From NCBI RefSeq assembly GCF_015206895.1, contig NZ_JADEXU010000023.1, positions 1 to 64,000 of the forward strand: a DNA stretch of 64,000 bases. The letters are read 5' to 3'. The notes under the pieces are model-generated. The model was not told where the DNA came from. It worked only from the letters and a program-made list of their open reading frames with translations, and did not search any database. The stretch is from Nostoc sp. LEGE 12450. Lineage in GTDB: Bacteria; Cyanobacteriota; Cyanobacteriia; Cyanobacteriales; Nostocaceae. Positions 2,922 to 56,144 of this stretch are shown here, piece after piece (position 1 is the stretch's first letter; each line of letters begins with the position of its first letter). Made by a program: the position numbers and the translations under genes.

Positions 2922-2940
2922 ACATAGGAGTGAAAATGAA

Positions 2941-2971: not shown

Positions 2972-3043
2972 AGGATTCTGGATAACGCATATTTAATTTC
3001 TGGAGATGTCTATTAGTACACTGTGGCAAAAGTTTGCTTACCT

Positions 3044-3072
3044 TTAATCAGTTGCTCAGAGCAACTGATTAA
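3044..3072. repeat. Perfect 14-bp inverted repeat, possible terminator of convergent genes
   Basis: Arms TTAATCAGTTGCTC and GAGCAACTGATTAA are separated by one A. It is the second palindrome in the same convergent gap (2922-3120) and lies 48 bp beyond the stop of the minus-strand gene. It would fold as a near-continuous hairpin in either transcript. Confidence 0.7.
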
Positions 3073-3120
3073 GCTAGGTAACAGGTAACTTGCAGTGCCA
3101 AGACCCGATTATCTGCCCTG

Positions 3121-6241: not shown

Positions 6242-6415
6242 GGAAATATATACTAATTTGGGATTTTCTAGGCTTTTTGAACCTACCTAGGCAGCTCAAG
6301 GTTTTTAGAGCTAACCCAAGCAAATTAATTTATGGTCACATCTTTGACATAATCTTGCAACGGCTTTGTCAAGACAATCTGCAATAGTTTACTCATCAAA
6401 CTGTTTAACGGAACG

Positions 6416-6439
6416 AGGCAGGTAATCCCTGCCTTTTTT
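6416..6439 (+). terminator. Rho-independent terminator
   Basis: The 7-bp stem AGGCAGG/CCTGCCT has a 5-nt loop and is followed by TTTTT on the plus strand. It is 175 bp downstream of the histidine kinase, with no gene in between, and faces the oncoming end of pbpC. Confidence 0.7.
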
Positions 6440-6605
6440 AATCCAATAAGGTTCAGTTAAGCATTTTTTCCCTTTGCGGTAGACTGGGGCAAACTGCTTT
6501 GCGCCTACATTAAAAAAATTGACTTACTTTGATAAAGAGTTTTAGCTTTAATTGAACTGTATTAATTTTTAATCAATACCCTCTAGCACTGCATTGCCTT
6601 ACTAA

Positions 6606-8966
6606 TTAATTAGGGTGATTCCCCTTTACCTGAGAATTACTAATAGAAAATCCTCGACGCGTAGGTTTAATATTAGCTAATTCCACTTTAAAACTTACCT
6701 TGTCAGTCATTTCACCGCTTCTTGCTTCCAAAGTCCACTTACCAGGACGTAAATTCCAAAATAAAGAATTAGCTGAGTTTGTATCTAACTTTTCGCCATT
6801 TAGCCACCATTCAACAGGCGCAAATTTATTTCCTGCTATCTTAAATTCGAGTTTTTGCTTCGCTTCTTCACCTGGATACAGTAAAAATAAATCGCCATGA
6901 TGGGGAGATAAAATTCTCAAATTTCTAGAAACAAGACTCGATTGCTGTTGTTTTGCCAACCACTCGTTATACTCTGGTGGTAAGTTAAATTGATTGTTAC
7001 CTTCATAGGCAATTTTATCTTCTGGATAGAAATATTCCTGCACAACTGAGGTACAATCTGATGTCGGTCGTAATCCCGAAATTGCACAAATAGGTAATTG
7101 TATTAAACCTTTAGGAGACGGAAAAGCTGCTGGTTCTTGATGTTCGTGCAGGTGTAACATAATCCGATTCCACAAGGGTGCAGCCCCTGTCACACCTGAA
7201 ACTTGTCGCATCGGTTCGCCGTTGAAATTGCCTACCCAAGTAGCGACGGTGTAATCAGTAGTGAAGCCAACTGTCCAAGTATCACGAAAATTGGAAGAAG
7301 TGCCAGTTTTAACGGCAACAGGAAAGGGTAAATTTAACACAGAGTTTACACCAAATGCTGTGGCACGAGCATGATTATCACTGAGGATGTTAGTAATTAA
7401 TTGCCATATCGTCGTTGAATTTTGGATATTACATCGCATATTTGGTGCGCTTTCAGCGCAACTTGAATTTTGAATTGGAGAATCAGAAAATGTGCTTACT
7501 AAAGGGATAGACTCTCCAAGTCGTGCCATAGTAACGTAAGCTCTAGCTAATTCCCATAAACTGACTTCGCCGCTACCGAGAGTTAACCCTAAACCGTAAT
7601 GTTCTGGGGTTTGATTGAGATTTTCAAACCCAAGTTGATGCAATCGTTCTAAAAAAGTCTGCACACCTACTTTTTCTAAAACCCTGACTGCGGGTACATT
7701 CAACGAATTTGCTAAGGCGATTCGCACCCGCACAGGGCCAAGAAAGCGTTCGGTGTAATCGGTTGGGCTATAAAGTCTCGCACCAGGAATTGCATAACGG
7801 GCGGGGACATCTGCCAAAATGGTATTTGGGCGAATTAAACCTTTTTCTAAAGCTAATTCATACACAAAAGGCTTGAGGGTAGAACCAGGTTGACGTAGCG
7901 CTTGCACTCCATCATTGCGTCCTAGTTTTGCTTGATTAAAGTAATCAGGCGAACCTACATAAGCCAAAACTTCACCATTGTGGTTGTCAATTACCAACGC
8001 AGCTGCATCATGAACATTATTGGCAGCTAGGGAAGAAATCACCTGCTGCACCTGTGCTTCCACAAACTGCTGTAAAGGGCGATTTATAGTTGTGCGAATA
8101 ACGGATTTATCTCCCCAGCCTTGCTTTTCAAGGGAAGTTGGGGGGATTTGATTGGCTAACCAAAATAAAAAGTGTGGTGCGGCGATAATTCCTCGTGGGC
8201 GAGACTGAAACACAACTTTTTCGGTGTGTGTTCGGTCTACCATCGCACCACTAATATATTTTTCCTCTACCATACGATTAAGGACGTATTTTTGTCGCTG
8301 CTTCAACCGTTCCCAATGTTCATAAGGATTAAAATATGTGGGATTATTGGGGATAGCAGCCAACAAACTAGCTTGAGCAAGATTTAACTCACTCGCTGGG
8401 ATGGAAAAATAAGTCTGCGCGGCTGCTTCCACACCATATATATTCCCGCCCATTGGTAGCCGATTAATATATGCAGAGAGAATTTCATCTTTATTCATCC
8501 CTGCTGTTAACCGCCAAGATAGCCAAATCTCTTGCAGTTTACCAGAAAAGGTGCGGGGGACGGGATCTAACATCCGCGACAGTTGCATAGTAATAGTGGA
8601 AGCGCCGGAAACAATTCGTTTGGCGTGGATGGCTTCTTTGGTGGCGCGGATAACAGCTTTCATATCCAACGCGCCGTGATGGTAAAAGCTGCCATCCTCG
8701 GCGGCTAAAATAGCATGGATAAACTGGGGTGAAACTTGATTTAGTGGGACTACTGATGTATGTTCTTGGTCACGGGTGAGCAATGTTCCTAATGGTAAAC
8801 CATTGCGATCGCTAAATTGCATTGCCAGTTGATTTTGGGCAATATCTGCGGCTCGAACGGGCGCAAAATAGGGTAATAAGCGTATAATCAGGCAGATTAC
8901 CAGCACAGCTAGGATAAATTTGCTACTGTGCTTAATTTGGAGTAGCGATCGTAAAATTAGTTTCAT
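6606..8966 (-). CDS. pbpC: Penicillin-binding protein 1C, bifunctional peptidoglycan synthase
   Basis: The 786-residue protein has the class A PBP1C layout. It starts with an N-terminal membrane anchor (about 17-37). The GT51 glycosyltransferase follows, with EDGSFYHHG carrying the catalytic Glu near residue 90. The transpeptidase has PGSTLKPF (active Ser), SLNVP (SxN) and KTGTSSNF, and the C-terminal extension is typical of PBP1C (BiPBP_C). It polymerises and cross-links peptidoglycan outside the inner membrane. It is divergent from the alpha-2-macroglobulin gene at 9310; the same pbpC/macroglobulin association is established in many bacteria and supports both calls. Confidence 0.93.
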   Translation of the reverse strand: MKLILRSLLQIKHSSKFILAVLVICLIIRLLPYFAPVRAADIAQNQLAMQFSDRNGLPLGTLLTRDQEHTSVVPLNQVSPQFIHAILAAEDGSFYHHGALDMKAVIRATKEAIHAKRIVSGASTITMQLSRMLDPVPRTFSGKLQEIWLSWRLTAGMNKDEILSAYINRLPMGGNIYGVEAAAQTYFSIPASELNLAQASLLAAIPNNPTYFNPYEHWERLKQRQKYVLNRMVEEKYISGAMVDRTHTEKVVFQSRPRGIIAAPHFLFWLANQIPPTSLEKQGWGDKSVIRTTINRPLQQFVEAQVQQVISSLAANNVHDAAALVIDNHNGEVLAYVGSPDYFNQAKLGRNDGVQALRQPGSTLKPFVYELALEKGLIRPNTILADVPARYAIPGARLYSPTDYTERFLGPVRVRIALANSLNVPAVRVLEKVGVQTFLERLHQLGFENLNQTPEHYGLGLTLGSGEVSLWELARAYVTMARLGESIPLVSTFSDSPIQNSSCAESAPNMRCNIQNSTTIWQLITNILSDNHARATAFGVNSVLNLPFPVAVKTGTSSNFRDTWTVGFTTDYTVATWVGNFNGEPMRQVSGVTGAAPLWNRIMLHLHEHQEPAAFPSPKGLIQLPICAISGLRPTSDCTSVVQEYFYPEDKIAYEGNNQFNLPPEYNEWLAKQQQSSLVSRNLRILSPHHGDLFLLYPGEEAKQKLEFKIAGNKFAPVEWWLNGEKLDTNSANSLFWNLRPGKWTLEARSGEMTDKVSFKVELANIKPTRRGFSISNSQVKGNHPN

Positions 8967-9309
8967 CAGGGAATCCCTGTTAAGAAAACCTACCTTAATT
9001 TTGACGCAGCGATTACATCGATATCAGTAAATATGTCAAATCCTTAATAATTTATTTGAAATAACTTAGCAGATGTAAATTAATATTTGCAGAAGTTAAA
9101 TACTGATTCATAGTTAAGAATTGTAGTGATTTTTAGGAACAATCATACAGGATTAGTTATCTATGTAAATAAACATACTTAAATCCAAACTCTAGGTAAA
9201 AAATAGTCATATAGCATCCTTTCTTGTCTTGGCATTGCCAACTCAAGAAGATATGCAAAGTTTTGTTAGCTATAACTTGTGAATTTTTTATTTTAAATTA
9301 CTAAAAAAT
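8967..9309. other. Divergent promoter region of pbpC and macroglobulin gene
   Basis: This 343-bp AT-rich gap separates the two divergent genes and must contain their promoters. I see no strong repeat, RNA or coding signal in it. Confidence 0.5.
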
Positions 9310-12300
9310 ATGATTATCAGATTTTTACACCGTTTACACAATAAAATTGTCTATTTCTTCCTTAGCGTTCTTGGCGTACTTAGCGGTAGCCTGCAACAAG
9401 CCGTTCGCGTAGCGTCTCGTAGAGAAGCGTCTACGTTAAAAAAAATTAGCCATTCCTCACGCCAGAAGAGAAGGATACAGTTTTTTCTTCTCTTTACATT
9501 CATGCTAGTGATGACAGGGTGTAATTTTTTTGGTATCAACTCAAGTAGAGAACAACTCCCAGCAGTATCCCCACTTACACCACCAAAATTACCAGACTGG
9601 ATTGAACAAATTAGTCCTATTGGCGATGCAAAACCTCTCAACCAAATTCGCATCCGTTTTAAAGAAGCTTTAATTCCAGTTGAAAGTCTTGATAGTCCAG
9701 AACAACAGAAAATATTAGAAAAATTTGCCCTTTGGCCGCCTTTACCCGGTCAATTTCGCTTTTTAACACCGCGTATGGTAGGTTTTCAAGCTGAGAAAGC
9801 ATTGCCAATAGCGACAAGATTTCAAGTCACTCTCAAAGCAGGTTTAGCTGATTTAAAAAATCATCGCTTAGATAAAGATTTACCTTGGACTTTCAATACC
9901 GAATCTATCAACCTGACTAATTTACCCGGTGTCAATCCCATTGAGAAGGCTGATATCGAACCCATTGGTTTACAAGAAAAGCTACAGTTTACTTCCAACG
10001 TAGAATTAAATTTAGCTTCCGTACAAGAAAAATTACAGTTAATTCCTGAAGGAAAAAATAAGGGTGTAGGCTTCAGAGTCGAATTAAATAAAGAAGAGAA
10101 ACTAGTAAAAAACGAAGAAGACCCTTTAGAAAAATTTGACCCTTCAGCCCGCAATTGGATTTATAATCTCATTCCACAGCAAAACCTTGAAAAGGCAACT
10201 CCTTATCGCCTAGTCTTTTCTCCCGGAATACGCCCTGCTTATGGGAATCTCCCTACAGAGAAAGAATTTGCTAGTAAGTTAGTAACTTATTCACCTTTAG
10301 CATTCCAGAAAATTAACTTTTACGGACAGCCAGATTCCGGTGGAACTTTTGGAAGATTTATTAAAGGCAGTCCTCAGCTAGAATTTAATAACGTCTTATT
10401 GGCAGATTCAGCTAAAGAAAGTATTACTATTAACCCAGCACCAAAAGACATTTCGAGAATCATCCAAATAAATGATGAAGATAAAATTGTCGGCATCAAT
10501 CCTTATGCGCTAGAACCAGCTAAAACTTATACAATTACTATTGACGGAAATCTTAAAGATAAGTTTGGGCAGACTTTGGGTAAACCCGTCACCCTTAAAT
10601 ATGATACTGGAGATTTAGCCGGGGATATATGGGTACCATCAGATTTAAATATTTTCCCCACAGATAAAAATTTACAGCTAAATATTACTACCGGAAATCT
10701 GCCAGAATCTAAATATAAAGCAGCTTATCGAGCAGTTAAACCGACAGATTTAGTTTATTTTAATAATAGTAGTGATTTATTACCACAACCTTCTGATTGG
10801 CAAAGCTTTAAGGTATCGGGTAAGAAAAATCAATCAGTTGATATTGCTGTTCCTCTGCGGGAAAAAATAAGTGCAGCTACAGGAATGTTAGCTTATGGAG
10901 TCCAAGCCCGCACTAATAAATATCAGGAAAATGGAAAGGAACTGTGGCGAGAACCTACCACTTATGGCTTAGTTGAATTGACGAATTTGGGCGTATTTAC
11001 TCAGTGGTTCCCTGATTCAGGCTTAATTCGCGTCAATCATCTAACAGATGGTTCGCCTGTTCAAGCGGCGGCTGTGGAAATTTATCAATCAAAATTACAA
11101 GCAAAATCTCGCCCCGAACCAGTACCTTGTGCAACTGGTAAAACTGATGAAAATGGAATTTTTAGAATTGTTCGTGAAGGATTACAGCAATGTTATTCTG
11201 GCAATGAAAGTTCTAGTAAATCACCACAATTATTAGTAATTGCCCGTGAAAACCAAGATTGGGCATTCGCTAGAACTGAAGAATATAGCGGCGTTTATGG
11301 CTATGGTATTGATGCAGGTTGGCAAGATAGTAAGCCAGAATCACGCGGGGTAATTTTCTCAGACAGACACTTATATCAACCAGGTGAAAAGGCTTGGTTT
11401 ACTGGTTTTGCTGGCTTCTTGCAAAATGGCACAATCCAACAAGATAAAAATGCCGTTTACCAATTAACTTTAGTAAATCCTGATGGACAAAAGACCAGCT
11501 TAGGTACACAAACTACAAATGAATTTGGTACGTTTTCTCTGGAATTGCCAATCAAGACTACTCAGCGCTTAGGCTACCATACAATCCAAGCGAAGAGTAA
11601 AAATGGACAAGAACTTTCTGGGGAATTTCGGGTAGCTGAGTTTAAGCCACCAAATTTTAAAGTCGAACTGAACTTAGATAAAGAATTTGCTTATATTGAC
11701 GAGAAAGTTGATATTAATGCAACAAGCAATTATTTATTTGGTGCGCCTGTAGAAGGTGGAGAAGCAAAATACTTTATTACTCGTCAACAGGCTAATTTTA
11801 TTCCCAAAGGTTGGGACGAATTTACTTTTGGTCGGCAGTGGTTATGGCCAGAAGAATCTCCTAGTATCTCTAGTGATGTGTTGCAAAATAATACCCAACT
11901 AGATGCTAATGGTAAAAGTAGCCAAACAGTGAGTGTAGCTAATGATTTACCATATCCCATGACTTACCAAGTAGATGTGCAAGTTGCAGATGTTTCTAAT
12001 CTGTCTGTAGCGAATTCCAAAACTTTTACAGCCTTACCGAGTAATCGTCTAATTGGGTTAAAAAGTAATTTCATTACTGATGCTGGTAAGGCTTTTCCTA
12101 TTGATGTAGTTGTTACCGACCCTACAGGAAAACCGATAACAGGTCAACGAGTGCGCCTGGAATTACAAGAGATTAAATACAGCAGTGTCACTCAATTAGT
12201 TGAAGGTAGCCGAACAGCAAAAAATCAAGTTGAATATAAAACAGTCGGACAAGCAGAAATTACATCTGCTAGTACTCCCCAATCGGTAAATTTGACAGCA

Positions 12301-15180
12301 CCGGAATCTGGTTCATACCGGATTAGAGTTAATTTTAGCGATGCAAAATCTGAATTAAGTGCCACAGATTTACAAATTTGGGCAACTGGAGAAAATCCTG
12401 TATTTTGGGGTTCGAAAGAAAAAGATGTCTTAGAACTGAAATTAGATAAACAAGAGTTTAAACCTGGTGAAACTGCTACTGTACTAATTCAATCTCCCTA
12501 TCCAGACGCAGAATTGTACTTTGCGGTGATTAAAGACAAACCCCTTTATCAGCAAATTACCAAGGTTCAAGGAAGCGCACCACAAATTCAGTTTCAAGTT
12601 ACACCAGAAATGCTGCCAAATGCAGCCATTGAAGCTGTATTAGTAAGGCAAGGTAAACCTATCAGCCAAGTAGAAGTAGGAAGTTTAGATAACTTGGTGA
12701 AAATTGGTTTTGCACCTTTTAAAGTTAACTTAGAAGATAAATATTTAAAACTTCAAGTTAAGCCAGTGCAAGCATCATTAGAACCTGGTGCAGAAGAAAC
12801 AGTACAACTGGAACTGAAGGATAATCAAGGAAATCCCACCAAAGGACAGTTTACAGTCATGGTGGTAAATGAAGCGGTGTTACAACTTTCTGGTTATCGT
12901 CCGCCAGATTTAGTGGATACAGTTTATGCAGAACAGACAATATCTACCCGCTTTAACGATAATCGCGCGGATGTTATATTACAACCACAAGATGTAGCTA
13001 AACCAAAAGGTTGGGGTTATGGCGGTGGTTTCTCAACTGGTGCAGCTAACACTCGCACTCGCACCGATTTTAAAGCCTTAGCTTACTACAACGCTTCTGT
13101 ACTTACTGATGCAAATGGTAATGCACAGATAACCTTTAAACTCCCGGATGACTTAACTACATGGCGGGTGATGGCTGTAGCCACCGATGGAAATCTGCGT
13201 TTCGGGAATGGGGACGCGACGTTTATCACTACCAAACCACTGCTAACTAATGCCATCTTGCCACAATTTGCCCGTCCAGGCGATCGCATTCTCGCTGGTT
13301 TATCTGTCACCAATAACACCGGGAATCCAGGAAATCTCTCAATTAATGGCGAACTTAGCGGTAGTGTGAAGTTTGCTGACAAAAACCCCACAACTACTAC
13401 TTTGCAAACCAAAGCTGAATCTGCAACTCATGCTTATCGCTTTCCAATGGTGGCGGATAGCGTCGGAGTTGGTAAGGTTCGCTTTACCACTCAGCTAAAT
13501 GGTACAGCCGCAGATGCTTTTGAATTACCTTTGGAAATTAAGCCAGTTGAAATTACAGAACAAGTTGTTGAAACTGGTGTCACCGAAAAACAGGTGAAAA
13601 TTCCTCTGAATGTTGATAAAAATACCTTCCCTGATGCGGGAGGTTTAGATATTCAGTTGGCGAGTACTTTGATACCGGAGATTCAAGCACCAGCAAAGCA
13701 GGTTTTAAAAGATAATGATTTGCCGTTTACAGAACCTGCTGCAAGTCAATTAATGATTGCGGCTAATTTACAAACTATCGCCCAAAAATATGGTCAAACT
13801 TTTGCAGAATTTAATCCTAGCCAACAAGCTAATTTAGCAATCGAACAATTACAAAAACTCCAAATAGCCGATGGTGGTTTTGCTGCTTTCCCCGGACAGG
13901 AAAAATCCGACCCTTGGGTTTCTGCTTATGCGGGTGAATCTTTGGCTAAAGCTAGTGAGGTGTTCCCTAATTTAGTTGACTCTGGAATGCTGTCTCGCCT
14001 CAAAACTTATCTGCAAAAAGTTCTAGCGAATCCTGGAGAATACGATTTTTGCAAACAACTACTCTGTAAAAGGCAACTGCAAATTAATGCTTTAATCGCC
14101 CTAGGAGATTTAGGAGATAAACGCAACACTTTTCTCGCAGATATTTATGAACAGCGCAATAATTTTGATTTAGTGACTCAAATTAAACTAGCGCGATATT
14201 TATCTCAATTCCCAGAATGGCAAGATGAATCTCAACCATTAGTAAACAAGCTGCAACAGAATCTCTATGAAACTGGTCGCACAGCAGTTGTGAGTTTACC
14301 CAGTAGTTGGGGATGGATGAGTTCATCTACGACGACGCAAGCACAAGCTTTACGCTTATTTATTGCCAAGCAAAGCAAACCCGAAGTTATAGATAAGTTA
14401 TTCCAAAGCCTTCTCGCACTGCGCCGGGATGGTACATGGCAAACTAACTATAATAATGCCCAAGCTTTAACAGCTTTGGTAGAATATAGCCAACTGCAAC
14501 CCACACCGCCGAATTTTGTTGCCACTGTGCAATTAGCTGGTAATAAGTTAGGAGAAAATCGTTTTGAAGGTTACAAAAATCCTAGCTTACAACTAATTGT
14601 GCCGATGAATCTATTACCTCGTGGGCGTAATGATTTAACGCTGCAAAAAGCAGGTAATGGCACTTTACACTATCTGGTTGCTTATAATTATCGCTTGCAG
14701 GGAAATCAACCAGGCAGATTTAACGGGTTACGCATAACGCGAAGAATTAGTCAAGTAAATGAAGAGAAAGTTTTACAAAAAACGGGGATTTACGCTTTCG
14801 ATAAACCCTTGACTTTAACCTCTGGACAGGTGTTTGATATTGGTTTAGAAATCATCGCCGATCGACCCGTAGATCATATAGTAATTAAAGATCCTTTACC
14901 AGCAGGTTTTGAGGCGGTGGATGCAAGTTTTCAAACTACCACAGCTGCATTACAAGCAAAAGCCGATAATTGGGAACTTGGCTTTAGAAATATCTACCGC
15001 GATCGCATTATCGCCTATGCCGACCACCTGGAACCAGGAGTTTATAGCCTGCATTACTTAGTCCGTTCTGTCACCCCTGGTACATTTTCCTGGCCTGGTG
15101 CAGAAGTTCACCTGCAATATGCACCAGAAGAATTTGGGCGTACTGCTGAGTCTACATTGATATTGGAGGATGCGAAGTAG
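9310..15180 (+). CDS. Bacterial alpha-2-macroglobulin family lipoprotein
   Basis: The 1956-residue protein has a lipoprotein signal (LLFTFMLVMTGC) whose Cys is near residue 71, unusually far from the start. The N-terminal stretch is partly encoded by a dispersed repeat. The MG domains follow, with the A2M core motif segments (GGGFSTGAANTRT; FKLPDDLTTWRVMAVATDG) and an alpha-helical C-terminal barrel. The thioester CxEQ expected near LPFT is absent (DNDLPFTEPAASQL). By analogy with E. coli YfhM/YfaS it would be an envelope protease trap or guard of peptidoglycan repair, paired with the neighbouring PbpC. With no thioester it cannot trap covalently, as in YfaS-type members. Confidence 0.88.
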   Translation: MIIRFLHRLHNKIVYFFLSVLGVLSGSLQQAVRVASRREASTLKKISHSSRQKRRIQFFLLFTFMLVMTGCNFFGINSSREQLPAVSPLTPPKLPDWIEQISPIGDAKPLNQIRIRFKEALIPVESLDSPEQQKILEKFALWPPLPGQFRFLTPRMVGFQAEKALPIATRFQVTLKAGLADLKNHRLDKDLPWTFNTESINLTNLPGVNPIEKADIEPIGLQEKLQFTSNVELNLASVQEKLQLIPEGKNKGVGFRVELNKEEKLVKNEEDPLEKFDPSARNWIYNLIPQQNLEKATPYRLVFSPGIRPAYGNLPTEKEFASKLVTYSPLAFQKINFYGQPDSGGTFGRFIKGSPQLEFNNVLLADSAKESITINPAPKDISRIIQINDEDKIVGINPYALEPAKTYTITIDGNLKDKFGQTLGKPVTLKYDTGDLAGDIWVPSDLNIFPTDKNLQLNITTGNLPESKYKAAYRAVKPTDLVYFNNSSDLLPQPSDWQSFKVSGKKNQSVDIAVPLREKISAATGMLAYGVQARTNKYQENGKELWREPTTYGLVELTNLGVFTQWFPDSGLIRVNHLTDGSPVQAAAVEIYQSKLQAKSRPEPVPCATGKTDENGIFRIVREGLQQCYSGNESSSKSPQLLVIARENQDWAFARTEEYSGVYGYGIDAGWQDSKPESRGVIFSDRHLYQPGEKAWFTGFAGFLQNGTIQQDKNAVYQLTLVNPDGQKTSLGTQTTNEFGTFSLELPIKTTQRLGYHTIQAKSKNGQELSGEFRVAEFKPPNFKVELNLDKEFAYIDEKVDINATSNYLFGAPVEGGEAKYFITRQQANFIPKGWDEFTFGRQWLWPEESPSISSDVLQNNTQLDANGKSSQTVSVANDLPYPMTYQVDVQVADVSNLSVANSKTFTALPSNRLIGLKSNFITDAGKAFPIDVVVTDPTGKPITGQRVRLELQEIKYSSVTQLVEGSRTAKNQVEYKTVGQAEITSASTPQSVNLTAPESGSYRIRVNFSDAKSELSATDLQIWATGENPVFWGSKEKDVLELKLDKQEFKPGETATVLIQSPYPDAELYFAVIKDKPLYQQITKVQGSAPQIQFQVTPEMLPNAAIEAVLVRQGKPISQVEVGSLDNLVKIGFAPFKVNLEDKYLKLQVKPVQASLEPGAEETVQLELKDNQGNPTKGQFTVMVVNEAVLQLSGYRPPDLVDTVYAEQTISTRFNDNRADVILQPQDVAKPKGWGYGGGFSTGAANTRTRTDFKALAYYNASVLTDANGNAQITFKLPDDLTTWRVMAVATDGNLRFGNGDATFITTKPLLTNAILPQFARPGDRILAGLSVTNNTGNPGNLSINGELSGSVKFADKNPTTTTLQTKAESATHAYRFPMVADSVGVGKVRFTTQLNGTAADAFELPLEIKPVEITEQVVETGVTEKQVKIPLNVDKNTFPDAGGLDIQLASTLIPEIQAPAKQVLKDNDLPFTEPAASQLMIAANLQTIAQKYGQTFAEFNPSQQANLAIEQLQKLQIADGGFAAFPGQEKSDPWVSAYAGESLAKASEVFPNLVDSGMLSRLKTYLQKVLANPGEYDFCKQLLCKRQLQINALIALGDLGDKRNTFLADIYEQRNNFDLVTQIKLARYLSQFPEWQDESQPLVNKLQQNLYETGRTAVVSLPSSWGWMSSSTTTQAQALRLFIAKQSKPEVIDKLFQSLLALRRDGTWQTNYNNAQALTALVEYSQLQPTPPNFVATVQLAGNKLGENRFEGYKNPSLQLIVPMNLLPRGRNDLTLQKAGNGTLHYLVAYNYRLQGNQPGRFNGLRITRRISQVNEEKVLQKTGIYAFDKPLTLTSGQVFDIGLEIIADRPVDHIVIKDPLPAGFEAVDASFQTTTAALQAKADNWELGFRNIYRDRIIAYADHLEPGVYSLHYLVRSVTPGTFSWPGAEVHLQYAPEEFGRTAESTLILEDAK
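9412..9428. repeat. Dispersed cyanobacterial repeat inside the macroglobulin reading frame
   Basis: GCGTCTCGTAGAGAAGC occurs here and again, inverted, at 62901-62917 in an intergenic spacer. The copy here is embedded in a longer GC-rich run that encodes part of the N-terminal extension before the signal peptide, so the repeat has been captured in frame. Confidence 0.7.
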
Positions 15181-45846: not shown

Positions 45847-48387
45847 ATGGAACCAGATAAACTGGGCCGTTTTAAGGAGTACGGCGAATTCATCCTCCGA
45901 AAGATAGATTCTGTGCCCCAGCACCCTTCAAAACAAGAAGATTGGGTTCCAGCTAGTCTTGATGACTGTCTCCTGCGTTTGCGGTCAGCTGCCCAGAAAA
46001 CTGTAGACCTTGCAACTTCACCTGTCAAAATTGGGGTGATGGGGGAATTCAGTAGTGGAAAAACTTTACTTTTAGGCAGTCTAATTGGATATGCAGATGC
46101 TTTACCAGTCAGTGAAAACCCCACTACAGGTAATGTTACCGCAATACACATCATCCCGCAAGACGACTTTGCAACTACCCAATTAAGTAATTTCACTGTA
46201 GAGTATCTTTCTCACGAAGGGGTACATGAGTGTCTACGCTTCATGCTAGGGGAAGCCCATAAACGCACGACAGCAGCAGGACTTCCTCCGATACCAGTAT
46301 CAAAACTCAACTCTGGTAAAGATATTATTAGCTGGTGTGAGGAGGCTTGGAATAGTAGCAACAATTTAGAGCTACGTTATTTACTCCGGGAGTTGGTATT
46401 ATTCCTGCGGGCTTATCAAGCTTATGGGGAAGTGATGTGTGGTGGGCACTACCAGATTGATGCTACCACCGCCCGTGAGGGACTACAACTGATCGAACAG
46501 CCAATGGCAATCCAAAATCTGAAATTTGAGGATTTACCGCCAGCGCATATCCGATTACCAAGTCCACCCCAGAGGCTACCAACAAAGTTATTGCAGAATA
46601 GCTTTCCACTCATCCGTCGCGTAGATATCGATGTGAAAATCTCACGGGAAATTTGGGATTTTACAGGTGCAGCTAAATTTATTCTGATTGACTTTCCAGG
46701 ATTGGGAGCTGCTAATTCGGGAGCTAGGGATACCTTTTTGTCACTGCGGGAACTGGCAGAAGTACAAACAATTTTGGTATTGCTAAATGGTAAATCTCCC
46801 GGTAGCGATCGCGCCAATAAAATTTTCACTATGATGCAGCAGCAGCGTCCAGGACAAGACCTGAAAGATTTAATTCTTGTAGGTGTAGGTCGCTTCGATC
46901 AACTCCCCCTAGACAGTGAAGGTGGCGAAAGAGAACTTGACCATTTGATTGAAGATAGCCATTTAAAAGAGGAAACCGTTTTCCAAAAACTCAAAGTTCT
47001 GCAAACTACCATTGATGGTGCAGAAGCTTTTACAACCCAAAAAGACCGGATCGTTTTACTGTCGCCACTGTTGGGACTAGCTGAATTAGCAAAACGTTCT
47101 ACTACAGTCAAAGCAGGCTCACCAGATTTTTTGGCTAACTTGGACTATCCTGATTACCTAGATCGGTCTAAACGCCTACAAGATAAATGGGAGCTATTAA
47201 GTGAACGGCTGTTAGAGACAGATCCCCGCAGTAATTTAGGCAAACAGCTAGGTTACTTTGGTCAAGATGGGGGACTTAGTAAGCTACGGGAATTGATTCA
47301 AACCCACGTAGCGACTCATGGTTTGAAGCAACTGTATGAAGATACTCGCAGAGCAGCTGATGTTGTGAGCCAGCAACAAGATCACTTGAAGGACATCATA
47401 GATGAAATTCACGAGCAAGGCATCCCCACAGGAGACAGTCCCGCCTTTATCGAGTTGCGCTTTGTCGTCGAAAGCTTAGATAAAATCTACAGGAATTTTC
47501 AAAAAGATTTAGGGACAGAACCACTTAAAGATCGGCGCGGTGTTGTCGTCAGCGATGTAGTTAAAGACGAACTCACTTTTAGAATCCTCAATTGGAACCA
47601 GTGGACTTTACTCTTCAACAAAGCCAACAATGGAGCGATCGCTCTGGCAGAATCTAAAGGTGCAGCCGGAAAATTATTTGATCGAGGAAACCGTGTAAAT
47701 ACTTCCCTTCCAACTAAAAGCGATGATTTTTATCCAGTATTTGAGAAAACCGTTAAAGAAGTAGAAGATTTTGCCCGCGATCGCATTCATCAAGCAGTGG
47801 TAGATTTGTTGAATCAATTGTCAAATTATGTCGCCCCAGAACGCGAACAATTGCAGGTATTTTTCCATCCAGATATGGAACAACAAATTGAAGAAAAATT
47901 TGGTTTTGAAGATGCCGATCTCTTTTACAAATTATTACTAGGATGCGATCCTAACGAATGGAAAGAAGCAATCATCTCGGAAATCAGTAGTAAAGATAAA
48001 ACAGTTGCACCTGAAACCATCTTTCCTCTAGCGCGTCAAGACGAGAAACACAACGTTGGTCAAATCTTTGACTGGGCACCAGAAAAAAGCCAAGGTTTAT
48101 CTAGATCGAGCAATCACCAACTTTTAGTACTGCGGCTGCGAGATGAAATCACTGCTAGCGCTAGTCTTCATCTTGTACAGTATGTTAGCGAAGTTAATCA
48201 GCAAATTAATTCAGAAATAGCAGGCATTTTGGATCAAATTATTCCTAGTTTGCAAAACCTTTCAAAAAAAGAAACTTTGCTGAGATATTTGGCGGCTGGG
48301 GACTTACCACCTGAGATAGCGATTCCTACTTGGTTGCAGATTATTTCAGAACTTGCTGCTGTTTCTTACTTAGATGATTTGAGATAA
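45847..48387 (+). CDS. Dynamin-like GTPase
   Basis: ATG 45847 (MEPDKLGRFKEYGEF) follows AGGCGGG; the track starts 7 codons earlier at 45826. The protein has about 846 residues. G1 is GEFSSGKTLLLGSLIG, G2 is a Thr in NPTTGNVTA, and G3 is DFPGLGAANSGARD. G4 is degenerate (VGRFDQLP). Long helical regions follow, with no membrane segment. Bacterial dynamin-like proteins remodel or patch membranes. With the Hsp70-fold ATPase and helical protein that follow, it resembles the SrfB/SrfC type of gene set known from enterobacteria; I make that link from memory of architecture and size. Confidence 0.85.
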   Translation: MEPDKLGRFKEYGEFILRKIDSVPQHPSKQEDWVPASLDDCLLRLRSAAQKTVDLATSPVKIGVMGEFSSGKTLLLGSLIGYADALPVSENPTTGNVTAIHIIPQDDFATTQLSNFTVEYLSHEGVHECLRFMLGEAHKRTTAAGLPPIPVSKLNSGKDIISWCEEAWNSSNNLELRYLLRELVLFLRAYQAYGEVMCGGHYQIDATTAREGLQLIEQPMAIQNLKFEDLPPAHIRLPSPPQRLPTKLLQNSFPLIRRVDIDVKISREIWDFTGAAKFILIDFPGLGAANSGARDTFLSLRELAEVQTILVLLNGKSPGSDRANKIFTMMQQQRPGQDLKDLILVGVGRFDQLPLDSEGGERELDHLIEDSHLKEETVFQKLKVLQTTIDGAEAFTTQKDRIVLLSPLLGLAELAKRSTTVKAGSPDFLANLDYPDYLDRSKRLQDKWELLSERLLETDPRSNLGKQLGYFGQDGGLSKLRELIQTHVATHGLKQLYEDTRRAADVVSQQQDHLKDIIDEIHEQGIPTGDSPAFIELRFVVESLDKIYRNFQKDLGTEPLKDRRGVVVSDVVKDELTFRILNWNQWTLLFNKANNGAIALAESKGAAGKLFDRGNRVNTSLPTKSDDFYPVFEKTVKEVEDFARDRIHQAVVDLLNQLSNYVAPEREQLQVFFHPDMEQQIEEKFGFEDADLFYKLLLGCDPNEWKEAIISEISSKDKTVAPETIFPLARQDEKHNVGQIFDWAPEKSQGLSRSSNHQLLVLRLRDEITASASLHLVQYVSEVNQQINSEIAGILDQIIPSLQNLSKKETLLRYLAAGDLPPEIAIPTWLQIISELAAVSYLDDLR

Positions 48388-48574
48388 GCTAACTCAGAGC
48401 CTACGCCCTTTCATATAAAAGCGTAGCCCGACGTAGATATAGCGCCAAATAAAAAAGCCAGTGCTAAAGAGAATCAATGGTACAAGACCAAAGATTCTCT
48501 AAATTCGTAATTTTATAATACAACATTACAATTTTTAGCCAGCTATAAAACAAACAACAGAAAGTGATACTATA

Positions 48575-51550
48575 ATGAACCCTTTTCAACTCAACAAATA
48601 TAGCGAACAAGAACCAAGCGAGAAACAACAAAAAAGATTTCCAGGATGGTTTGCTTTAGATTTTGGCACATCGAACTCTACAGTTACACTATTCGATCCC
48701 ATTGAAGTGCCGATCGCAGAAATTCTACCAAAAGAACAAGAAATGCGGTTGCGCGATCGCTTATCACAATGGCTGAGTTCTCCCGCTTCAGTCGCTTTAC
48801 CAGATGTCAGTGATGATGATTGGGCAAAGTTCATCACAGAAATTAGCAAAAACCTGGAGATAGATCCAAGAAAGTTGAGTGAAGTATTTGAAAGTGACAA
48901 TAAAGAGCGATTTTTGGAAGCAATTCGCCAAATTGAGCTTTCTTTAGGAAATAGCGAGAGGTTTCGCCGTGCTGTCAGCAAAAAACTTTACCAAATTTAT
49001 CATGAGGTATTCCGCGTCCCTACCCTAGAGTCGCAAAATTTGATCCCAGTTGTGCTGGATATCGATCGCCGCGATACGGAAATTCCCAGCGAGTTGGAAA
49101 TTTCGCAGTTAGGGGACTTAAAACTGCGGATGGGTAGGGAAGCTAGAGATAACCGCAAAAAAGCGATCGCTCAAGGTACAAGCGGTTCTCTAAAGGAAAT
49201 TATCAGCAGGTTTCACCATTCACCCAAGCGCTATTTTGGTCAGGAGCGATCGTTTTCGGTTATTTTGGATGGTAAAGAAGAAATAATTACCGCAAATCAA
49301 CTGATTCAATCTGCTTGGGCGCATTTAATCGAGTTAACTGAAGATTACCGCCAACGCGCCCAACGTAGATTTTCAGAAGGAACTTTTTTGACAGCAGTTG
49401 TTACCTACCCCACCGTCGCCCCACCAGTTGTTCGCAAGGAAGTTAAGGAATTTGTTGAGCAATTGGGGATCGATGATGTCCAAACTGCTTATGATGAAGC
49501 CGTTTCTGTGGCAATATTCTTTTTGTGGCGAGAATTTGGCGGTAATCTGAATATTGGCATCGAATCATTCAAAACTCGTTGCCGTCAAGTAGGAAATAAA
49601 TGGTCACAAAATGTCCTCGTTTTGGATATCGGCGGCGGAACCACAGACTTAGCTTTAATTGAACTGACTTTAGAAGATAAAACCCCTACTTTTGCTGATT
49701 ATGAAGACCGGGGTTTAGGAGGACGTTACTATAAACTCACCCCCAAATTATTAGGTTCATCTGGTCATTTACAGTTAGGTGGTGAGTTAATCACGCTGCG
49801 GATTTTTAGATTATTAAAAGTTGCGATCGCAGACTTCTTGTTGACAGCAGTAACAACAGGTGATATTGAAAGCGAAAAGCTAGAAGATTTAATTAGCTCT
49901 GAATTAAACGAACGATTTTTAGAACAAGGTAAATTCAAAAGTGGTAGTCTTTTAAAATGTCTAGATAAAGAGAATCCAGAAGGTGATATTGCTTACAAAG
50001 ATGCCCTAGATACTGCCGAGAAAATATTACCCACTCGTTGGCAACAAACACCCCAACGCCTGCAATCCTTTTATATCCTCTGGGATCATGCAGAGGCAGC
50101 TAAACTTAAACTTGGGCAAAAAGCACCAGCAGATAATTCTCTATTAACCTTCACACTTTCTGAACAACAAATTTCCGAACTGCTCACTCAAAGCGCCGTC
50201 AAATTGCAAGTCAAAGAGCCAAATAGCATCTGCGTTACTCTAGATAACCACCAGTTTGAACGAGCCACCGTTTCAGGAATTAAGGAAGCGATTGGTATTG
50301 CTAAAGGATTGATGGAAAGTCGCTTACGTCCTGATGATCTCACCAAAGATTCTTGGAATTCCCAAAAAGTTGATTGGTTAATTTTGTCTGGAAAAACTTG
50401 TAATTTAGACATAGTGCAGCGCCAAATCTACCAAGAATTTAGTAAATCTCCATATTTTGTGTGGAATCCAGAACGAATTACCTTTGTGTTGGAATTTACC
50501 AAATTAGCTACCTCTGCCGGTGCTTGCTATGCCGAAAAACTACGAAGATTGAGATTCGATCCAGAAGAGTCTAAAAGCTTGCTGCGTAAGGGAGCCAATC
50601 AACTAGAAATTGATGTCAAAAACCTGTTTTATTATTTGCCTTGCAACTTCAAACGCAAAACCCAAAGTAACGATTTACTAACCATATTTAAAGCTGGACA
50701 AGAACTCTATCAACTCGCACCTTGGGAAAGTGTCGCCAAGGTTCGTACTGCATGGCAAGGAATCCAATTAACTAATATTATTTACCGTCAAGACTACGAA
50801 GATGGAGATTTACGACTATGGGGTAGCTTTGACGGCAAAAACCTCATGAATAAACTGGGAATGCAAGAAGCCGAGTTTCTGAAAAAAATTAAAGTCCAGT
50901 TTGAAATTGACCAAACCCTTGAATTTAATGTGTTGCTTTGTCAGGGAAATCCTCATTATTTAATTGATATCCCTGGCATTGATTTGGAATCGGTTGTTTC
51001 AGAAACATCACCGTTATTTGCTGATGGTAAATTAAACTGGAATATTGCCGTTGAGGGTTTAAATAAAGATTTAAATGATGGTGATATTGCCGTCAATGTT
51101 ATTGAGTCGGCAACTGTCGATCAACCAGATGCTTATCATCTTGTCTTTGAAGTAGGAAATGATGGTAGTAAGTTGTTCCAAAAATTTCACTATCTGCGCG
51201 ATGGTGTGACGGAACCAGGAATTGGGTTAATTAGTAATCCTTTACCTCCCTTCCCACAAACAGGCCAACACACCTTCTATATTTATCAAACAGATGCGGA
51301 AACCAACAGCAAAAAATGGATACGAATTGGCGCACTCAGCAAGCCAGATGTGACAACAGATTACCCTTGCCAATATCGTGTAACTCTAGACGATCAAGGT
51401 ATCCTACGGATGCACGCTGGTGAAGTACCTTACTGGACATCAAACAGTCAGGAATGCCTAAAAGAAGAGGGATGTATTTATATTGCTGAATTAGAATTGC
51501 AACCCAATGAAGTTGATAAAGAACGCGATCCATTTTGCGGTATACATTAA
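48575..51550 (+). CDS. Large Hsp70/actin-fold ATPase (SrfB-like)
   Basis: The 991-residue protein has the phosphate-1 loop GWFALDFGTSNSTVTLF, the phosphate-2 loop NVLVLDIGGGTTDLALIE, and an adenosine-type segment WLILSGKTCNLDIV. The C-terminal 350 residues are beta-rich and unlike DnaK's substrate domain. Size and layout recall SrfB-family proteins. It follows the dynamin-like gene by 187 bp and precedes the third gene by 138 bp. An ATP-driven scaffold or chaperone for the GTPase is inferred. Confidence 0.8.
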   Translation: MNPFQLNKYSEQEPSEKQQKRFPGWFALDFGTSNSTVTLFDPIEVPIAEILPKEQEMRLRDRLSQWLSSPASVALPDVSDDDWAKFITEISKNLEIDPRKLSEVFESDNKERFLEAIRQIELSLGNSERFRRAVSKKLYQIYHEVFRVPTLESQNLIPVVLDIDRRDTEIPSELEISQLGDLKLRMGREARDNRKKAIAQGTSGSLKEIISRFHHSPKRYFGQERSFSVILDGKEEIITANQLIQSAWAHLIELTEDYRQRAQRRFSEGTFLTAVVTYPTVAPPVVRKEVKEFVEQLGIDDVQTAYDEAVSVAIFFLWREFGGNLNIGIESFKTRCRQVGNKWSQNVLVLDIGGGTTDLALIELTLEDKTPTFADYEDRGLGGRYYKLTPKLLGSSGHLQLGGELITLRIFRLLKVAIADFLLTAVTTGDIESEKLEDLISSELNERFLEQGKFKSGSLLKCLDKENPEGDIAYKDALDTAEKILPTRWQQTPQRLQSFYILWDHAEAAKLKLGQKAPADNSLLTFTLSEQQISELLTQSAVKLQVKEPNSICVTLDNHQFERATVSGIKEAIGIAKGLMESRLRPDDLTKDSWNSQKVDWLILSGKTCNLDIVQRQIYQEFSKSPYFVWNPERITFVLEFTKLATSAGACYAEKLRRLRFDPEESKSLLRKGANQLEIDVKNLFYYLPCNFKRKTQSNDLLTIFKAGQELYQLAPWESVAKVRTAWQGIQLTNIIYRQDYEDGDLRLWGSFDGKNLMNKLGMQEAEFLKKIKVQFEIDQTLEFNVLLCQGNPHYLIDIPGIDLESVVSETSPLFADGKLNWNIAVEGLNKDLNDGDIAVNVIESATVDQPDAYHLVFEVGNDGSKLFQKFHYLRDGVTEPGIGLISNPLPPFPQTGQHTFYIYQTDAETNSKKWIRIGALSKPDVTTDYPCQYRVTLDDQGILRMHAGEVPYWTSNSQECLKEEGCIYIAELELQPNEVDKERDPFCGIH

Positions 51551-51688
51551 CTCTTGCATTAAACCTTTGCGTTCCTCTACGTTGAAAAAATTAAGATTTT
51601 TAAACGCAGAGGGGCGCGGAGTAAACGCAAAGGTACGCAGAGGTTTGCCAAGTTTAATTCGCTATAAAAATATTTGGAGGTGAGATTC

Positions 51689-52780
51689 ATGCAGCACTTG
51701 CGTCAATTATTAGAGATAGAAAACTCACAGTTAGCCCAGTTACTGCGGTTTAGTTTGTATGGACTAGAGGCGACTTTAAATCAGGCTCGCACAGAATTAC
51801 CACTAGATCCAGGATCTAAAATATGCGATGAGGTGCTGCAAGAACTTCATAACCTGTTGGAACCTGTACCCCCACAGCAAAATACTGGTTGGGAAGATGC
51901 GCCAGATGATTTAAAACTAAGTCACCTGCGGGAAGTTTTTGATTCTGACTCAGAACTTAATTATTATCTGGGTAATTCCCAACTGCAAAGCACAACGGAT
52001 TCTGATTTATGGAATGAGATTCAACGCAAGCTGCTGCGAGTACCAGAAGATTTAGCTGCAACTTGGCGATCGCGCACTTTAGATTTAGCTCAAGAAGTTG
52101 GTGCGATCGCAGATAATTCTAACCTCTATCAACTTCCCTTTATCCGCGACGAAATTATCTACCCTGGCCTTAGTGGTACTGTTCAAACTCAGGGATTGAC
52201 CTTGTATCAGCAGGCACTCTCAACTTCTAAAATTCCCCAAGGTAATGTATCCGATTTACCAGCAGCATTCCTATTTTTATATATGAATTTTATTGAAATA
52301 GACCCCGATTTACATCATGCTTTAAAGAGCGTTTTTAGCTTCGATGTCATTTCCTTGCACTCCAAAGCAGAACAGCGCGATCAATATATTGATGCTTTAA
52401 GCGATCGCTTCCAACGCACCCAAAAAGCTGAGAAAAACACTGATCCCCTGTCAATTCTTCGTGCTTGGATTGACATGGATGAAGCAATACATTCCTTAGT
52501 ATTCGTACCACCGGCTGAACGCTATTCTTGGTGGGGGAAGCTACAACATGAATCACGGCGCATCCTGAAGAAAGTTGTTGATGAGGCAATTAATGCAGGT
52601 AATGAAGTGCGAATTCGCCAATTATCAGGGCTTTATGCAGATATCTGTGCTTCATCCAAAGATGATTTACAACTAGACTGTGGTGGTATTCCTGGCGAAG
52701 TCTTAACTTGTCTGCGAGTATATGCGCGAATTAATCAGGAAGAATCCCCAGGTCGTGTAATATTTCGCTCATCACGGTAA
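51689..52780 (+). CDS. Helical protein, third gene of the GTPase cassette
   Basis: ATG 51689 sits 5-6 nt after GGAGGTGAG; the track start at 51674 is a TTG inside the ribosome-binding site. The 363 residues are almost wholly helical (LLEIENSQLAQLLRFSLYGL; QRKLLRVPEDLAATWRSR; RILKKVVDEAINAGNEVRI), with no signal peptide or TM. I do not recognise the family. Operon position makes it the likely partner of the two NTPases. The spacer before it holds an inverted CGTTTACTCCGC-type repeat (AAACGCAGAGG...). Confidence 0.7.
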   Translation: MQHLRQLLEIENSQLAQLLRFSLYGLEATLNQARTELPLDPGSKICDEVLQELHNLLEPVPPQQNTGWEDAPDDLKLSHLREVFDSDSELNYYLGNSQLQSTTDSDLWNEIQRKLLRVPEDLAATWRSRTLDLAQEVGAIADNSNLYQLPFIRDEIIYPGLSGTVQTQGLTLYQQALSTSKIPQGNVSDLPAAFLFLYMNFIEIDPDLHHALKSVFSFDVISLHSKAEQRDQYIDALSDRFQRTQKAEKNTDPLSILRAWIDMDEAIHSLVFVPPAERYSWWGKLQHESRRILKKVVDEAINAGNEVRIRQLSGLYADICASSKDDLQLDCGGIPGEVLTCLRVYARINQEESPGRVIFRSSR

Positions 52781-54102: not shown

Positions 54103-55239
54103 ATGGCAGAAGTTCTCCATTTTACAGAATTTATCAAAGGAGTAACCTATAAAACTTACTTGGATGATAATTTAAGCAGGATTAGTTTAGATGTATTTGA
54201 TGTCAATAAAGAAAGGGGTTATGGATTAATCAAGTCACCTACAACTGAAATTGCTTATTCAAAATGGGTATCTCCTAAGAGAAGCAAAAGTTATCCATTT
54301 GCTAGAATTTATAATACATATAATTCATCGAAAAAAATAACTATTATCCCGGTGATTAAAGATGAGGGCAAAGATGGCGATATAGATAAGATTCAATACT
54401 CCACAATTTCTTGGATGAATTTGCTTAATATCTATATAGTACTTGCTTATTACGAAACAGCAAAAAAAAGTACTAAAAAGAGCCACTTTAATAAAAATAG
54501 GTTGAGTAATCAGAAATTTGCTAATGATTTTGTTAAATTTCAAATTAGTGAAATATTAGCATATCACCAAAGCGCACTGCATTGGAACAAGAATCTATTT
54601 GAAGAAAGATTTACACAAACTTTTGAAAAAGCTCTAGATTCTTATGATTCTATTTCTAATAGAACTGGAGTAATAACTCACTCACGAGAAGGCTCAGATA
54701 AATATTTATATAAAATCAGAGAACAGTTTGATGAATTTAAGAATATTTCTCTTAAAGGTTCTCAAAGAGCTAGTAAGAGAGAAGCGTTGACTTCTCATAA
54801 GCTAGAATATTTAGCGGATGGATTAAAAGCAACTTTTAGTATTGAAAACTATCTTGGCGGAATTTACTATTTGACTCCTGATGAGATAATATTTGAGAAC
54901 AACATGTATGTTATACAAGAGTCAAAAAATACTTCAACAGGATCTTTGCCAAAGCTCCCTGATATTAAAGATGGTTTATTCAAGCTAATTTTATTTTCTA
55001 ATTTAGATTCTTTAATATTGAACGATAAGCCAGTATTATTTATTACCAAACTAAAGCTTACGGGCAAAAACGTTGTTGGTTCTATTGTTTTTCCAGATGC
55101 ATCTATAGAAGACCTAGAATACTTTTTAGAAGTTAATATTAAAATTTTTAATACAAATCAAAAAGCAATTATAAAAAAATTGGCTTTAGAAGCTCAAAAC
55201 AATCATAAACTTAAAATAGAAGTATCCAGTAATTTTTAA
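54103..55239 (+). CDS. Probable restriction endonuclease (PD-(D/E)xK-like)
   Basis: The 378-residue protein has low GC and many Lys and Asn, unlike the flanking genes. A nuclease-like segment occurs late: TPDEIIFENNMYVIQESKNT, with Asp/Glu, a hydrophobic strand and ESK as in PD-(D/E)xK enzymes. The N-terminal half (EFIKGVTYKTYLDDNL) is unassigned. It ends 17 bp before an adenine methyltransferase gene, so the pair reads as a type II restriction-modification module. The target site is unknown. Confidence 0.6.
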   Translation: MAEVLHFTEFIKGVTYKTYLDDNLSRISLDVFDVNKERGYGLIKSPTTEIAYSKWVSPKRSKSYPFARIYNTYNSSKKITIIPVIKDEGKDGDIDKIQYSTISWMNLLNIYIVLAYYETAKKSTKKSHFNKNRLSNQKFANDFVKFQISEILAYHQSALHWNKNLFEERFTQTFEKALDSYDSISNRTGVITHSREGSDKYLYKIREQFDEFKNISLKGSQRASKREALTSHKLEYLADGLKATFSIENYLGGIYYLTPDEIIFENNMYVIQESKNTSTGSLPKLPDIKDGLFKLILFSNLDSLILNDKPVLFITKLKLTGKNVVGSIVFPDASIEDLEYFLEVNIKIFNTNQKAIIKKLALEAQNNHKLKIEVSSNF

Positions 55240-55256
55240 ACATTATAATCTTGGTT

Positions 55257-56144
55257 ATGATTAAAAGCCCTCTCCGATATCCTGGTGGGAAGTCAAAAGC
55301 AATAAATCAGATAGCTGAATACTTACCAGAGAGCTTTTCAGAATTTCGAGAGCCTTTTGTAGGCGGTGGTTCTGTATTTATTTATTTAAGACAAAAGTTT
55401 CCTCATATCAAGATTTGGATTAACGATTTAAACCGCGAACTCTTTTTATTCTGGAAGTTTGCCCAATCTGATATAGCTCAGTTAGTTAAAGAAATTCGAA
55501 ATATTAAAATCAAATATACAGATGGCAAATTACTCTTTAGAGATTTAACTAGTGTAGATGTCAATAATTTACCTGATTTAGAAAGAGCAGTTCGCTTTTT
55601 CGTACTCAATAGAATTACTTTTTCAGGAACTGTAGAATCAGGCGGTTTTTCTGAACAAGCTTTCCATAAAAGATTTACTGATTCTTCAATAGAACGGCTA
55701 GAAAAGTTAGAAAATATTTTATCAGAAAATGTCCAAATTACTAATTTGGATTACAGCCACCTATTAAAGCCAGAAGGGGAAGATGTATTTTTATTTTTAG
55801 ATCCACCATATTTTAGCGCTAAAAAATCAAAGCTATATGGTAAAGATGGTAACTTGCACACATATTTTGAGGATCAGAGATTTGCTGAACTTTTGCAACA
55901 ATGTCATCATCGCTGGCTAATTACCTATGACAACTCAACGCAAATTCTAGAAAATTTCCAATGGGCTAATATTGCAGAATGGGAATTACAGTATGGCATG
56001 AATAACTATAAACAGAGTGGTGCAGCCAAAGGAAAAGAATTATTCATTACTAACTACGAAGTTAAACTTTATTTGGATAAAAAAGCAAAAAATCAGAAAC
56101 TTGTTAATCCAGATTTGCAGTTGAGCCTTGATATTTCAACCTAA
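55257..56144 (+). CDS. Dam/D12-class adenine-N6 DNA methyltransferase
   Basis: ATG 55257 (the track starts two codons earlier at TTG) gives 295 residues. Motif I-type [34 protein letters not shown] and the catalytic LDPPYF (motif IV) show the D12 class. Members methylate GATC or other adenine sites. Low GC and coupling to the nuclease-like gene suggest a horizontally acquired restriction-modification pair. Confidence 0.9.

What the first reader, a model, noticed from the sequence alone, without database searches (positions are those of the whole stretch)
45847..52780. Three-gene cassette of dynamin-like GTPase, Hsp70-fold ATPase and helical protein
Two large NTPases of membrane-remodelling and chaperone type with a helical third partner look like a self-contained machine. 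The combination resembles the srfB/srfC pair of enterobacteria, whose role is unclear, and dynamin-like cassettes have been tied to phage defence and membrane repair.
Basis: inference. Interest (0 to 1): 0.6.

Follow-up and report, generated by a model that had tools for sequence, protein, structure and literature searches.

The report
Dynamin–Hsp70-like operon of filamentous cyanobacteria
Three genes that always travel together, encoding a membrane-bending motor, a chaperone-like ATPase and a protein found nowhere else, are kept by almost every heterocyst-family cyanobacterium examined, which points to a membrane-protecting machine in filamentous bacteria whose job is still unknown.

Summary
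DYN (45847-48387), HSP (48575-51550) and HEL (51689-52780) are intact, under purifying selection (dN/dS 0.05-0.16) and form a conserved gene set. DYN is a dynamin-family GTPase (its model matches SynDLP, BDLP, MxB and mitofusin). HSP has all three Hsp70/actin ATPase motifs. HEL is mixed alpha/beta, not purely helical, and matches no known family.

HSP and full-length HEL are both present in 10 of 100 genomes of the order and both absent from the other 90. HSP occurs in 143 of 147 genomes of the window's family, but in none of about 259 other cyanobacteria in one sample. Members in Streptomyces, Nocardia and two more actinobacteria keep the gene order.

SrfB is only a distant relative (below cut-off in every member); SrfC was not detected in the window protein. 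The dynamin/DnaK pair was noted in 2018 as the 'chaperone clade'; the third gene, near-universality, actinobacterial members and conflict-system links appear undescribed. In one Nostoc paralogue DYN-HSP sits in a MoxR-vWA-iSTAND conflict operon; in Nocardia the cassette abuts a double-GTPase/GAP1 system.

Best reading: an Hsp70-gated dynamin machine that protects membranes in filaments, possibly recruited into immunity. The mechanism is inferred.

The parts
45847..48387 (+). DYN: dynamin-like GTPase, 846 aa, 95 kDa (P-loop GEFSSGKT at residues 66-73, G3 DFPG 282-285, G4-like GRFD about 348-351; long stalk helices 477-524, 629-669, 757-807)
   Evidence: Dynamin_N above cut-off; AlphaFold model matches SynDLP/BDLP/mitofusin/MxB; dN/dS 0.06-0.09. 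ATG 45826 is an alternative start.
48575..51550 (+). HSP: Hsp70/actin-superfamily ATPase, 991 aa, 113 kDa; lacks the ~145-aa N-terminal domain that most relatives carry
   Evidence: Phosphate-1, phosphate-2 and adenosine motifs conserved; best Pfam SrfB, sub-threshold; DnaK 1dkg_D weak profile hit E=0.0099; dN/dS 0.05-0.08
51689..52780 (+). HEL: third, cassette-specific protein, 363 aa, 41 kDa; mixed alpha/beta, with a detachable ~60-aa N-terminal helical module
   Evidence: AlphaFold pLDDT 89.8; no Pfam family; full-length copies only in genomes with HSP; N-terminal module triplicated in Okeania; weak structural hit to GrpE. TTG 51674 is an upstream alternative start.
48388..48574 (+). intergenic stretch where most relatives encode the N-terminal domain of HSP; domain lost here
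   Evidence: NTD profile positive in most relatives; absent from this genome and 7 close ones
51551..51688 (+). intergenic stretch with an ACGCAGAGGGGCGCGGAG repeat-like sequence and the ribosome-binding site of HEL
   Evidence: sequence; single copy in the window

Best explanation
DYN, HSP and HEL are subunits or partners of one ATP- and GTP-driven machine that acts at the cell membrane of filamentous bacteria. DYN oligomerises on membrane and tethers, fuses or seals it, as other bacterial dynamins do. HSP, an Hsp70-type ATPase, controls DYN by holding it inactive or taking its oligomers apart, in the way Hsc70 strips coats in eukaryotes. HEL is the dedicated co-factor of HSP (possibly a nucleotide-exchange or adaptor protein). 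The job is keeping membranes intact after damage or infection in filaments of joined cells; some lineages have plugged the same module into dedicated conflict systems. Shown: the three intact genes, their linkage, selection, the dynamin fold of DYN and the ATPase motifs of HSP. Inferred: physical complex, membrane action, gating of DYN by HSP, co-factor role of HEL, physiological purpose.
For: HSP and full-length HEL are both present in 10 and both absent in 90 of 100 genomes; DYN in 10/10 genomes with HSP and 0/16 without. Order DYN-HSP-HEL is kept across cyanobacteria and in all four actinobacterial genomes examined, with overlapping genes in several relatives. Strong purifying selection. 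Dynamin fold of DYN. Intact ATPase motifs in HSP. HSP in 143/147 genomes of the window's family, with conserved surroundings in the Nostoc/Anabaena branch, which suggests a regular function. No relative found on plasmids, phages or viral contigs. Cyanobacterial and other bacterial dynamins have been linked to membrane fusion and repair (PMC9950537, PMC10104851). The named hosts are, from general knowledge, filamentous or mycelial genera.
Against: No expression, localisation or interaction data. No strongly hydrophobic membrane segment in DYN (top 19-residue hydropathy 1.36), although dynamins need none. In G018 and G084 the P-loop is degenerate (GEFNTTKT, GEFKATKT), so GTP binding may not be needed everywhere. 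HSP's C-terminal part has no detectable relative of known structure, so substrate binding is unsupported. Three loci have no HEL next to HSP (L026, L044, L055).
Confidence: 0.45

Rival explanations
1. The cassette is an anti-phage or self-sacrifice module of the NTP-dependent conflict-system kind described in multicellular prokaryotes: HSP and HEL set the threshold and DYN attacks or seals membranes of infected cells.
For: In Nostoc sp. [quoted passage not shown] its DYN is fused to a 245-aa N-terminal region (48% and 62% identical to the window proteins). In Nocardia the cassette is followed by an Hsp70, DO-GTPase2 and GAP1-N2. A vWA gene sits directly upstream in G018 and G084. In actinobacteria it is rare and sporadic (2/149, 2/150). 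Such systems are enriched in multicellular prokaryotes (PMC7159879). A B. subtilis dynamin is reported to give phage resistance (cited in PMC9950537 and PMC10104851).
Against: Near-universal in the window's family with conserved surroundings; no MoxR, vWA or iSTAND relative in the window; PADLOC gives only a weak LeoA match; only one of the loci examined has the iSTAND coupling.
Confidence: 0.35
2. It is a distant cyanobacterial/actinobacterial branch of the SrfABC operon, with HSP = SrfB, DYN = SrfC and HEL = SrfA, and works as SrfABC does.
For: SrfB is the best Pfam family for HSP in the window and matches all ten members and actinobacterial ones; Virul_Fac/SrfC appears weakly for two actinobacterial DYNs (E 0.011, 0.036); sizes are parallel (41/113/95 kDa against 51/114/102 kDa for SrfA/B/C; PMC6950479).
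Against: All SrfB hits whose scores were shown are below the curated cut-off and limited to the shared ATPase motif region; no SrfC hit for the window protein; gene order differs; SrfA not compared.
Confidence: 0.2
3. HEL is a GrpE-like nucleotide-exchange factor and the cassette is a complete, private Hsp70-NEF pair driving a dynamin.
For: Best Foldseek hit of HEL is GrpE from the DnaK complex (1dkg_A, E=0.039, prob 0.89), with human GrpEL1 entries at ranks 8, 23 and 26; HEL sits next to an Hsp70-type ATPase.
Against: The hit is not significant and the TM-score is low (0.35 by target); profile-profile comparison with GrpE is no better than reversed or shuffled controls; the PF01025 search did not list HEL.
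Confidence: 0.2

Closest known systems
'Chaperone clade' of cyanobacterial dynamin-like proteins (Jilly et al. 2018, PMC5827413)
   Same: A cyanobacterial dynamin-like gene followed by a gene with a DnaK domain; very probably the same pair
   Different: The passages read do not mention the third gene, the N-terminal domain, near-universality in one family, actinobacterial members or conflict-system links; no experiments on this clade
SrfB/SrfC (SrfABC operon of enterobacteria and others; PF07520, PF10139)
   Same: Triad of similar-sized proteins; SrfB profile touches the ATPase motif region of HSP
   Different: Below family cut-offs; other gene order; third protein not compared
SynDLP and Nostoc BDLP dynamins
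   Same: Overall dynamin fold
   Different: About 11-13% identity; described without an Hsp70 partner
MoxR-vWA ternary (iSTAND) and GAP1/double-GTPase conflict systems (Kaur et al. 2020, PMC7159879)
   Same: Chaperone-type NTPases with GTPases in multicellular bacteria; direct linkage in single relatives (L044, L065)
   Different: The window cassette has none of the defining MoxR, vWA, iSTAND, DO-GTPase or GAP1 genes; the word dynamin does not occur in that paper's main text

Membership tests
Dynamin superfamily (DYN) | Dynamin_N GTPase domain with P-loop | tested here: met
   29.4 bits, cut-off 27; P-loop GEFSSGKT
Dynamin superfamily (DYN) | GTPase head plus long helical stalk | tested here: met
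   AlphaFold model; the strongest Foldseek hits are dynamin-family structures
Dynamin superfamily (DYN) | GTP hydrolysis and membrane remodelling | not testable with these tools
   needs biochemistry
Hsp70/actin superfamily (HSP) | phosphate-1, phosphate-2 and adenosine motifs | tested here: met
   DFGTSNST, DIGGGTTD, DWLILSG conserved
Hsp70 family PF00012 proper (HSP) | score above the family cut-off | tested here: not met
   10.2 bits, cut-off 20.6
Hsp70 family PF00012 proper (HSP) | C-terminal substrate-binding domain | tested here: inconclusive
   no PDB relative of residues 666-991 by sequence; not modelled
SrfB (PF07520) | match over the family cut-off along the protein | tested here: not met
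   23.4 bits, cut-off 27.1, residues 297-370 only
SrfC (PF10139) | match over the family cut-off | tested here: not met
   no hit for the window protein; weak hits in two actinobacterial members
SrfABC operon | third gene homologous to SrfA | not tested
   SrfA sequences were not fetched
'Chaperone clade' dynamin-like proteins (Jilly 2018) | DnaK-domain gene directly downstream | tested here: met
   HSP follows DYN here and in all 45 named loci
'Chaperone clade' dynamin-like proteins (Jilly 2018) | placement in the published tree | not tested
   the paper's sequence list was not available
MoxR-vWA ternary conflict system | MoxR, vWA and VMAP/iSTAND genes in the operon | tested here: not met
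   none in the window; met only for paralogue L044
GrpE (HEL) | sequence profile match | tested here: not met
GrpE (HEL) | GrpE-like fold | tested here: inconclusive
   top structural hit but E=0.039 and low TM-score

The most novel reading that the evidence does not exclude
An old dynamin effector module, gated by its own Hsp70-type ATPase and a new co-factor protein, has become a core part of heterocyst-family cyanobacteria, where it seals or sacrifices damaged or infected cells to protect the filament, and is also traded into MoxR-vWA-iSTAND and GAP1 conflict systems: a new class of chaperone-controlled dynamin immunity.
Probability: 0.2. Interest if true: 0.85.

Novelty: new variant of a known kind. 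Interest (0 to 1): 0.58.

Why it matters
Bacterial dynamins have few known partners and mostly unknown jobs. Here is one with two fixed partners, including an Hsp70-type ATPase, kept by nearly every member of a family of multicellular bacteria that includes genetically tractable strains. That makes the question 'what regulates a bacterial dynamin, and for what' directly testable. The links of relatives to conflict systems would connect membrane upkeep and immunity in filaments.

Tried and rejected
1) Mobile defence-island reading: rejected as the main reading for the window, because the cassette is near-universal in the family, sits in conserved surroundings and is not found on plasmids, phages or viral contigs. 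2) HEL as an effector-associated domain protein: only an EAD9 hit at E=0.07 in one of ten members. 3) HEL as GrpE by sequence: hhalign no better than reversed or shuffled controls; two earlier attempts used badly trimmed or wrongly oriented GrpE rows and were discarded, the corrected run is (a few actinobacterial GrpE rows there still look out of frame). 4) Lost N-terminal domain of HSP moved elsewhere in this genome: not found. 5) Other second copies as conflict-system variants: none of those examined except L044. 6) RNA elements: none at gathering threshold; promoter and terminator scans no better than chance. 7) Literature on SrfB/SrfC with dynamin, Hsp70 or cyanobacteria: nothing relevant; dynamin with conflict-system terms: nothing.

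Full report
OBSERVATION. Three + strand genes fill 45.8-52.8 kb. DYN starts best at ATG 45847, HSP at 48575, and HEL at ATG 51689 behind GGAGGTGA. The window lies in contig C190 of an 8.8-Mb genome; Desmonostoc muscorum FACHB-395 has an HSP identical at protein level, so the host is a Nostoc-like cyanobacterium. dN/dS against five relatives is 0.05-0.09 for DYN and HSP and 0.12-0.16 for HEL: all three are maintained genes.

DYN. It passes the Dynamin_N cut-off with an intact P-loop GEFSSGKT and a G3 motif DFPG. The AlphaFold model (pLDDT 83.5, pTM 0.60) matches SynDLP (E=1.6e-14), Nostoc BDLP, MxB, IniA, DRP1 and mitofusins. Low TM-scores may reflect different placement of head and stalk or model uncertainty; the family assignment is consistent. 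In two distant members (G018, G084) the P-loop is degenerate.

HSP. Phosphate-1 (DFGTSNST), phosphate-2 (DIGGGTTD) and adenosine (DWLILSG) motifs are invariant or nearly so. Pfam gives SrfB for all ten members (best E 4.4e-6; below cut-off for the window) and HSP70 for one. Most relatives carry an extra ~145-residue N-terminal domain with no Pfam or PDB relative. It is missing in the window and close Nostoc and is not elsewhere in those genomes; in G018 it is a separate overlapping reading frame.

HEL. No family matches. The model is confident (pLDDT 89.8) and mixed alpha/beta. A ~60-residue N-terminal helical module precedes a disordered linker; in Okeania this module occurs three times in one protein. 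The best structural neighbour is GrpE (E=0.039, prob 0.89), attractive next to an Hsp70-type ATPase, but profile comparison does not support it. It is kept as a hypothesis.

CO-OCCURRENCE. In 100 genomes of the order, HSP occurs in 10 and full-length HEL in the same 10, plus one HEL remnant in G032. DYN was checked in 26 of these genomes: present in all 10 with HSP, absent in 16 without. All 45 named loci have DYN before HSP, and HEL follows except in L026, L044 and L055 and where contigs end. Actinobacterial members in Streptomyces, Nocardia and two more genomes keep DYN-HSP-HEL; in G539 and Nocardia the genes overlap or abut.

DISTRIBUTION. In the window's family 143 of 147 genomes carry HSP. 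In a phylum-wide sample of 291 genomes all 32 hits were in this family; in the order sample 5 of 95 outside it had one. In two actinobacterial orders it is rare (2/149, 2/150). In the Nostoc/Anabaena branch the cassette often sits between a PAS histidine kinase and a cytochrome b561 / Dam methylase / TrpD2 / CarA block, whereas deep branches have other surroundings. No relative was found on plasmids, phages or viral contigs. This is the pattern of a core gene set in one family with occasional transfer elsewhere. Named hosts are filamentous or mycelial (general knowledge of the genera); the named list is not exhaustive.

CONFLICT-SYSTEM LINKS. Nostoc sp. KVJ20 has a second DYN-HSP pair (L044; 48% and 62% identity to the window; [quoted passage not shown] This is the composition of an iSTAND ternary system (PMC7159879); DYN is fused behind a 245-residue N-terminal region, HSP follows with a different N-terminus, and HEL is missing. 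It is the only such case among loci examined. In Nocardia (L065) the cassette is followed by an Hsp70-like protein, DO-GTPase2 and GAP1-N2 (the last just under its cut-off). A vWA gene precedes DYN in G018 and G084. None of these genes is near the window's cassette.

PRIOR KNOWLEDGE. Jilly et al. 2018 (PMC5827413) define a 'chaperone clade' of cyanobacterial dynamins with a DnaK-domain gene downstream and suggest a link between membrane remodelling and chaperone activity. That covers the pair. No paper found describes the third gene, the distribution or the links above. SrfABC is reported to form a complex (PMC6950479), a useful analogy for complex formation, but membership is not supported by family cut-offs.

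MECHANISM. The economical reading is a dynamin whose assembly on membrane is controlled by a private Hsp70-type ATPase and co-factor. Direct support ends at fold, motifs, linkage and selection. Whether the purpose is repair, filament integrity or immunity is open; the core-gene pattern favours upkeep, the links of relatives favour conflict, and both may be true.

LIMITS. HSP was not modelled. SrfA/B/C sequences were not compared directly. The confidences of the explanations are not exclusive: the GrpE reading refines the best explanation rather than competing with it.

Noticed in passing
L044 (Nostoc sp. KVJ20, NZ_KV757644.1) 27-10961: Operon-like run Trypsin_2 / EAD1-VMAP-M1-iSTAND / MoxR-like AAA / VWA_CoxE / N-terminal region fused to DYN / HSP: a dynamin-Hsp70-type module inside an iSTAND ternary conflict system.
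   Followed up: partly
L065 13019-18499 (Nocardia tenerifensis): Second Hsp70-like protein, coiled-coil protein, DO-GTPase2 and GAP1-N2 directly after the cassette.
   Followed up: partly
window 54103-56144: Unannotated 378-aa ORF followed by a D12-class adenine methyltransferase, possibly a restriction-modification pair; the ORF has no Pfam match.
   Followed up: no
L019:1949-2701 and L020:5005-5685: vWA gene directly upstream of DYN in the two most distant cyanobacterial members, whose DYN P-loops are degenerate.
   Followed up: partly
L059 11203-12993 (Okeania sp. SIO2B3): HEL protein with its N-terminal helical module in three tandem copies.
   Followed up: partly
G032:C53:16915-17190: Remnant of HEL (last ~92 residues) in a genome without HSP or DYN: a trace of loss of the cassette.
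   Followed up: no
L014 (G035) 12002-14589; L016 (G002) 11597-12934: DYN split into two frames in G035; a membrane-transporter-like gene inserted between HSP and HEL in G002.
   Followed up: no
window 51604-51621: ACGCAGAGGGGCGCGGAG repeat-like sequence in the HSP-HEL gap, single copy in the window.
   Followed up: partly
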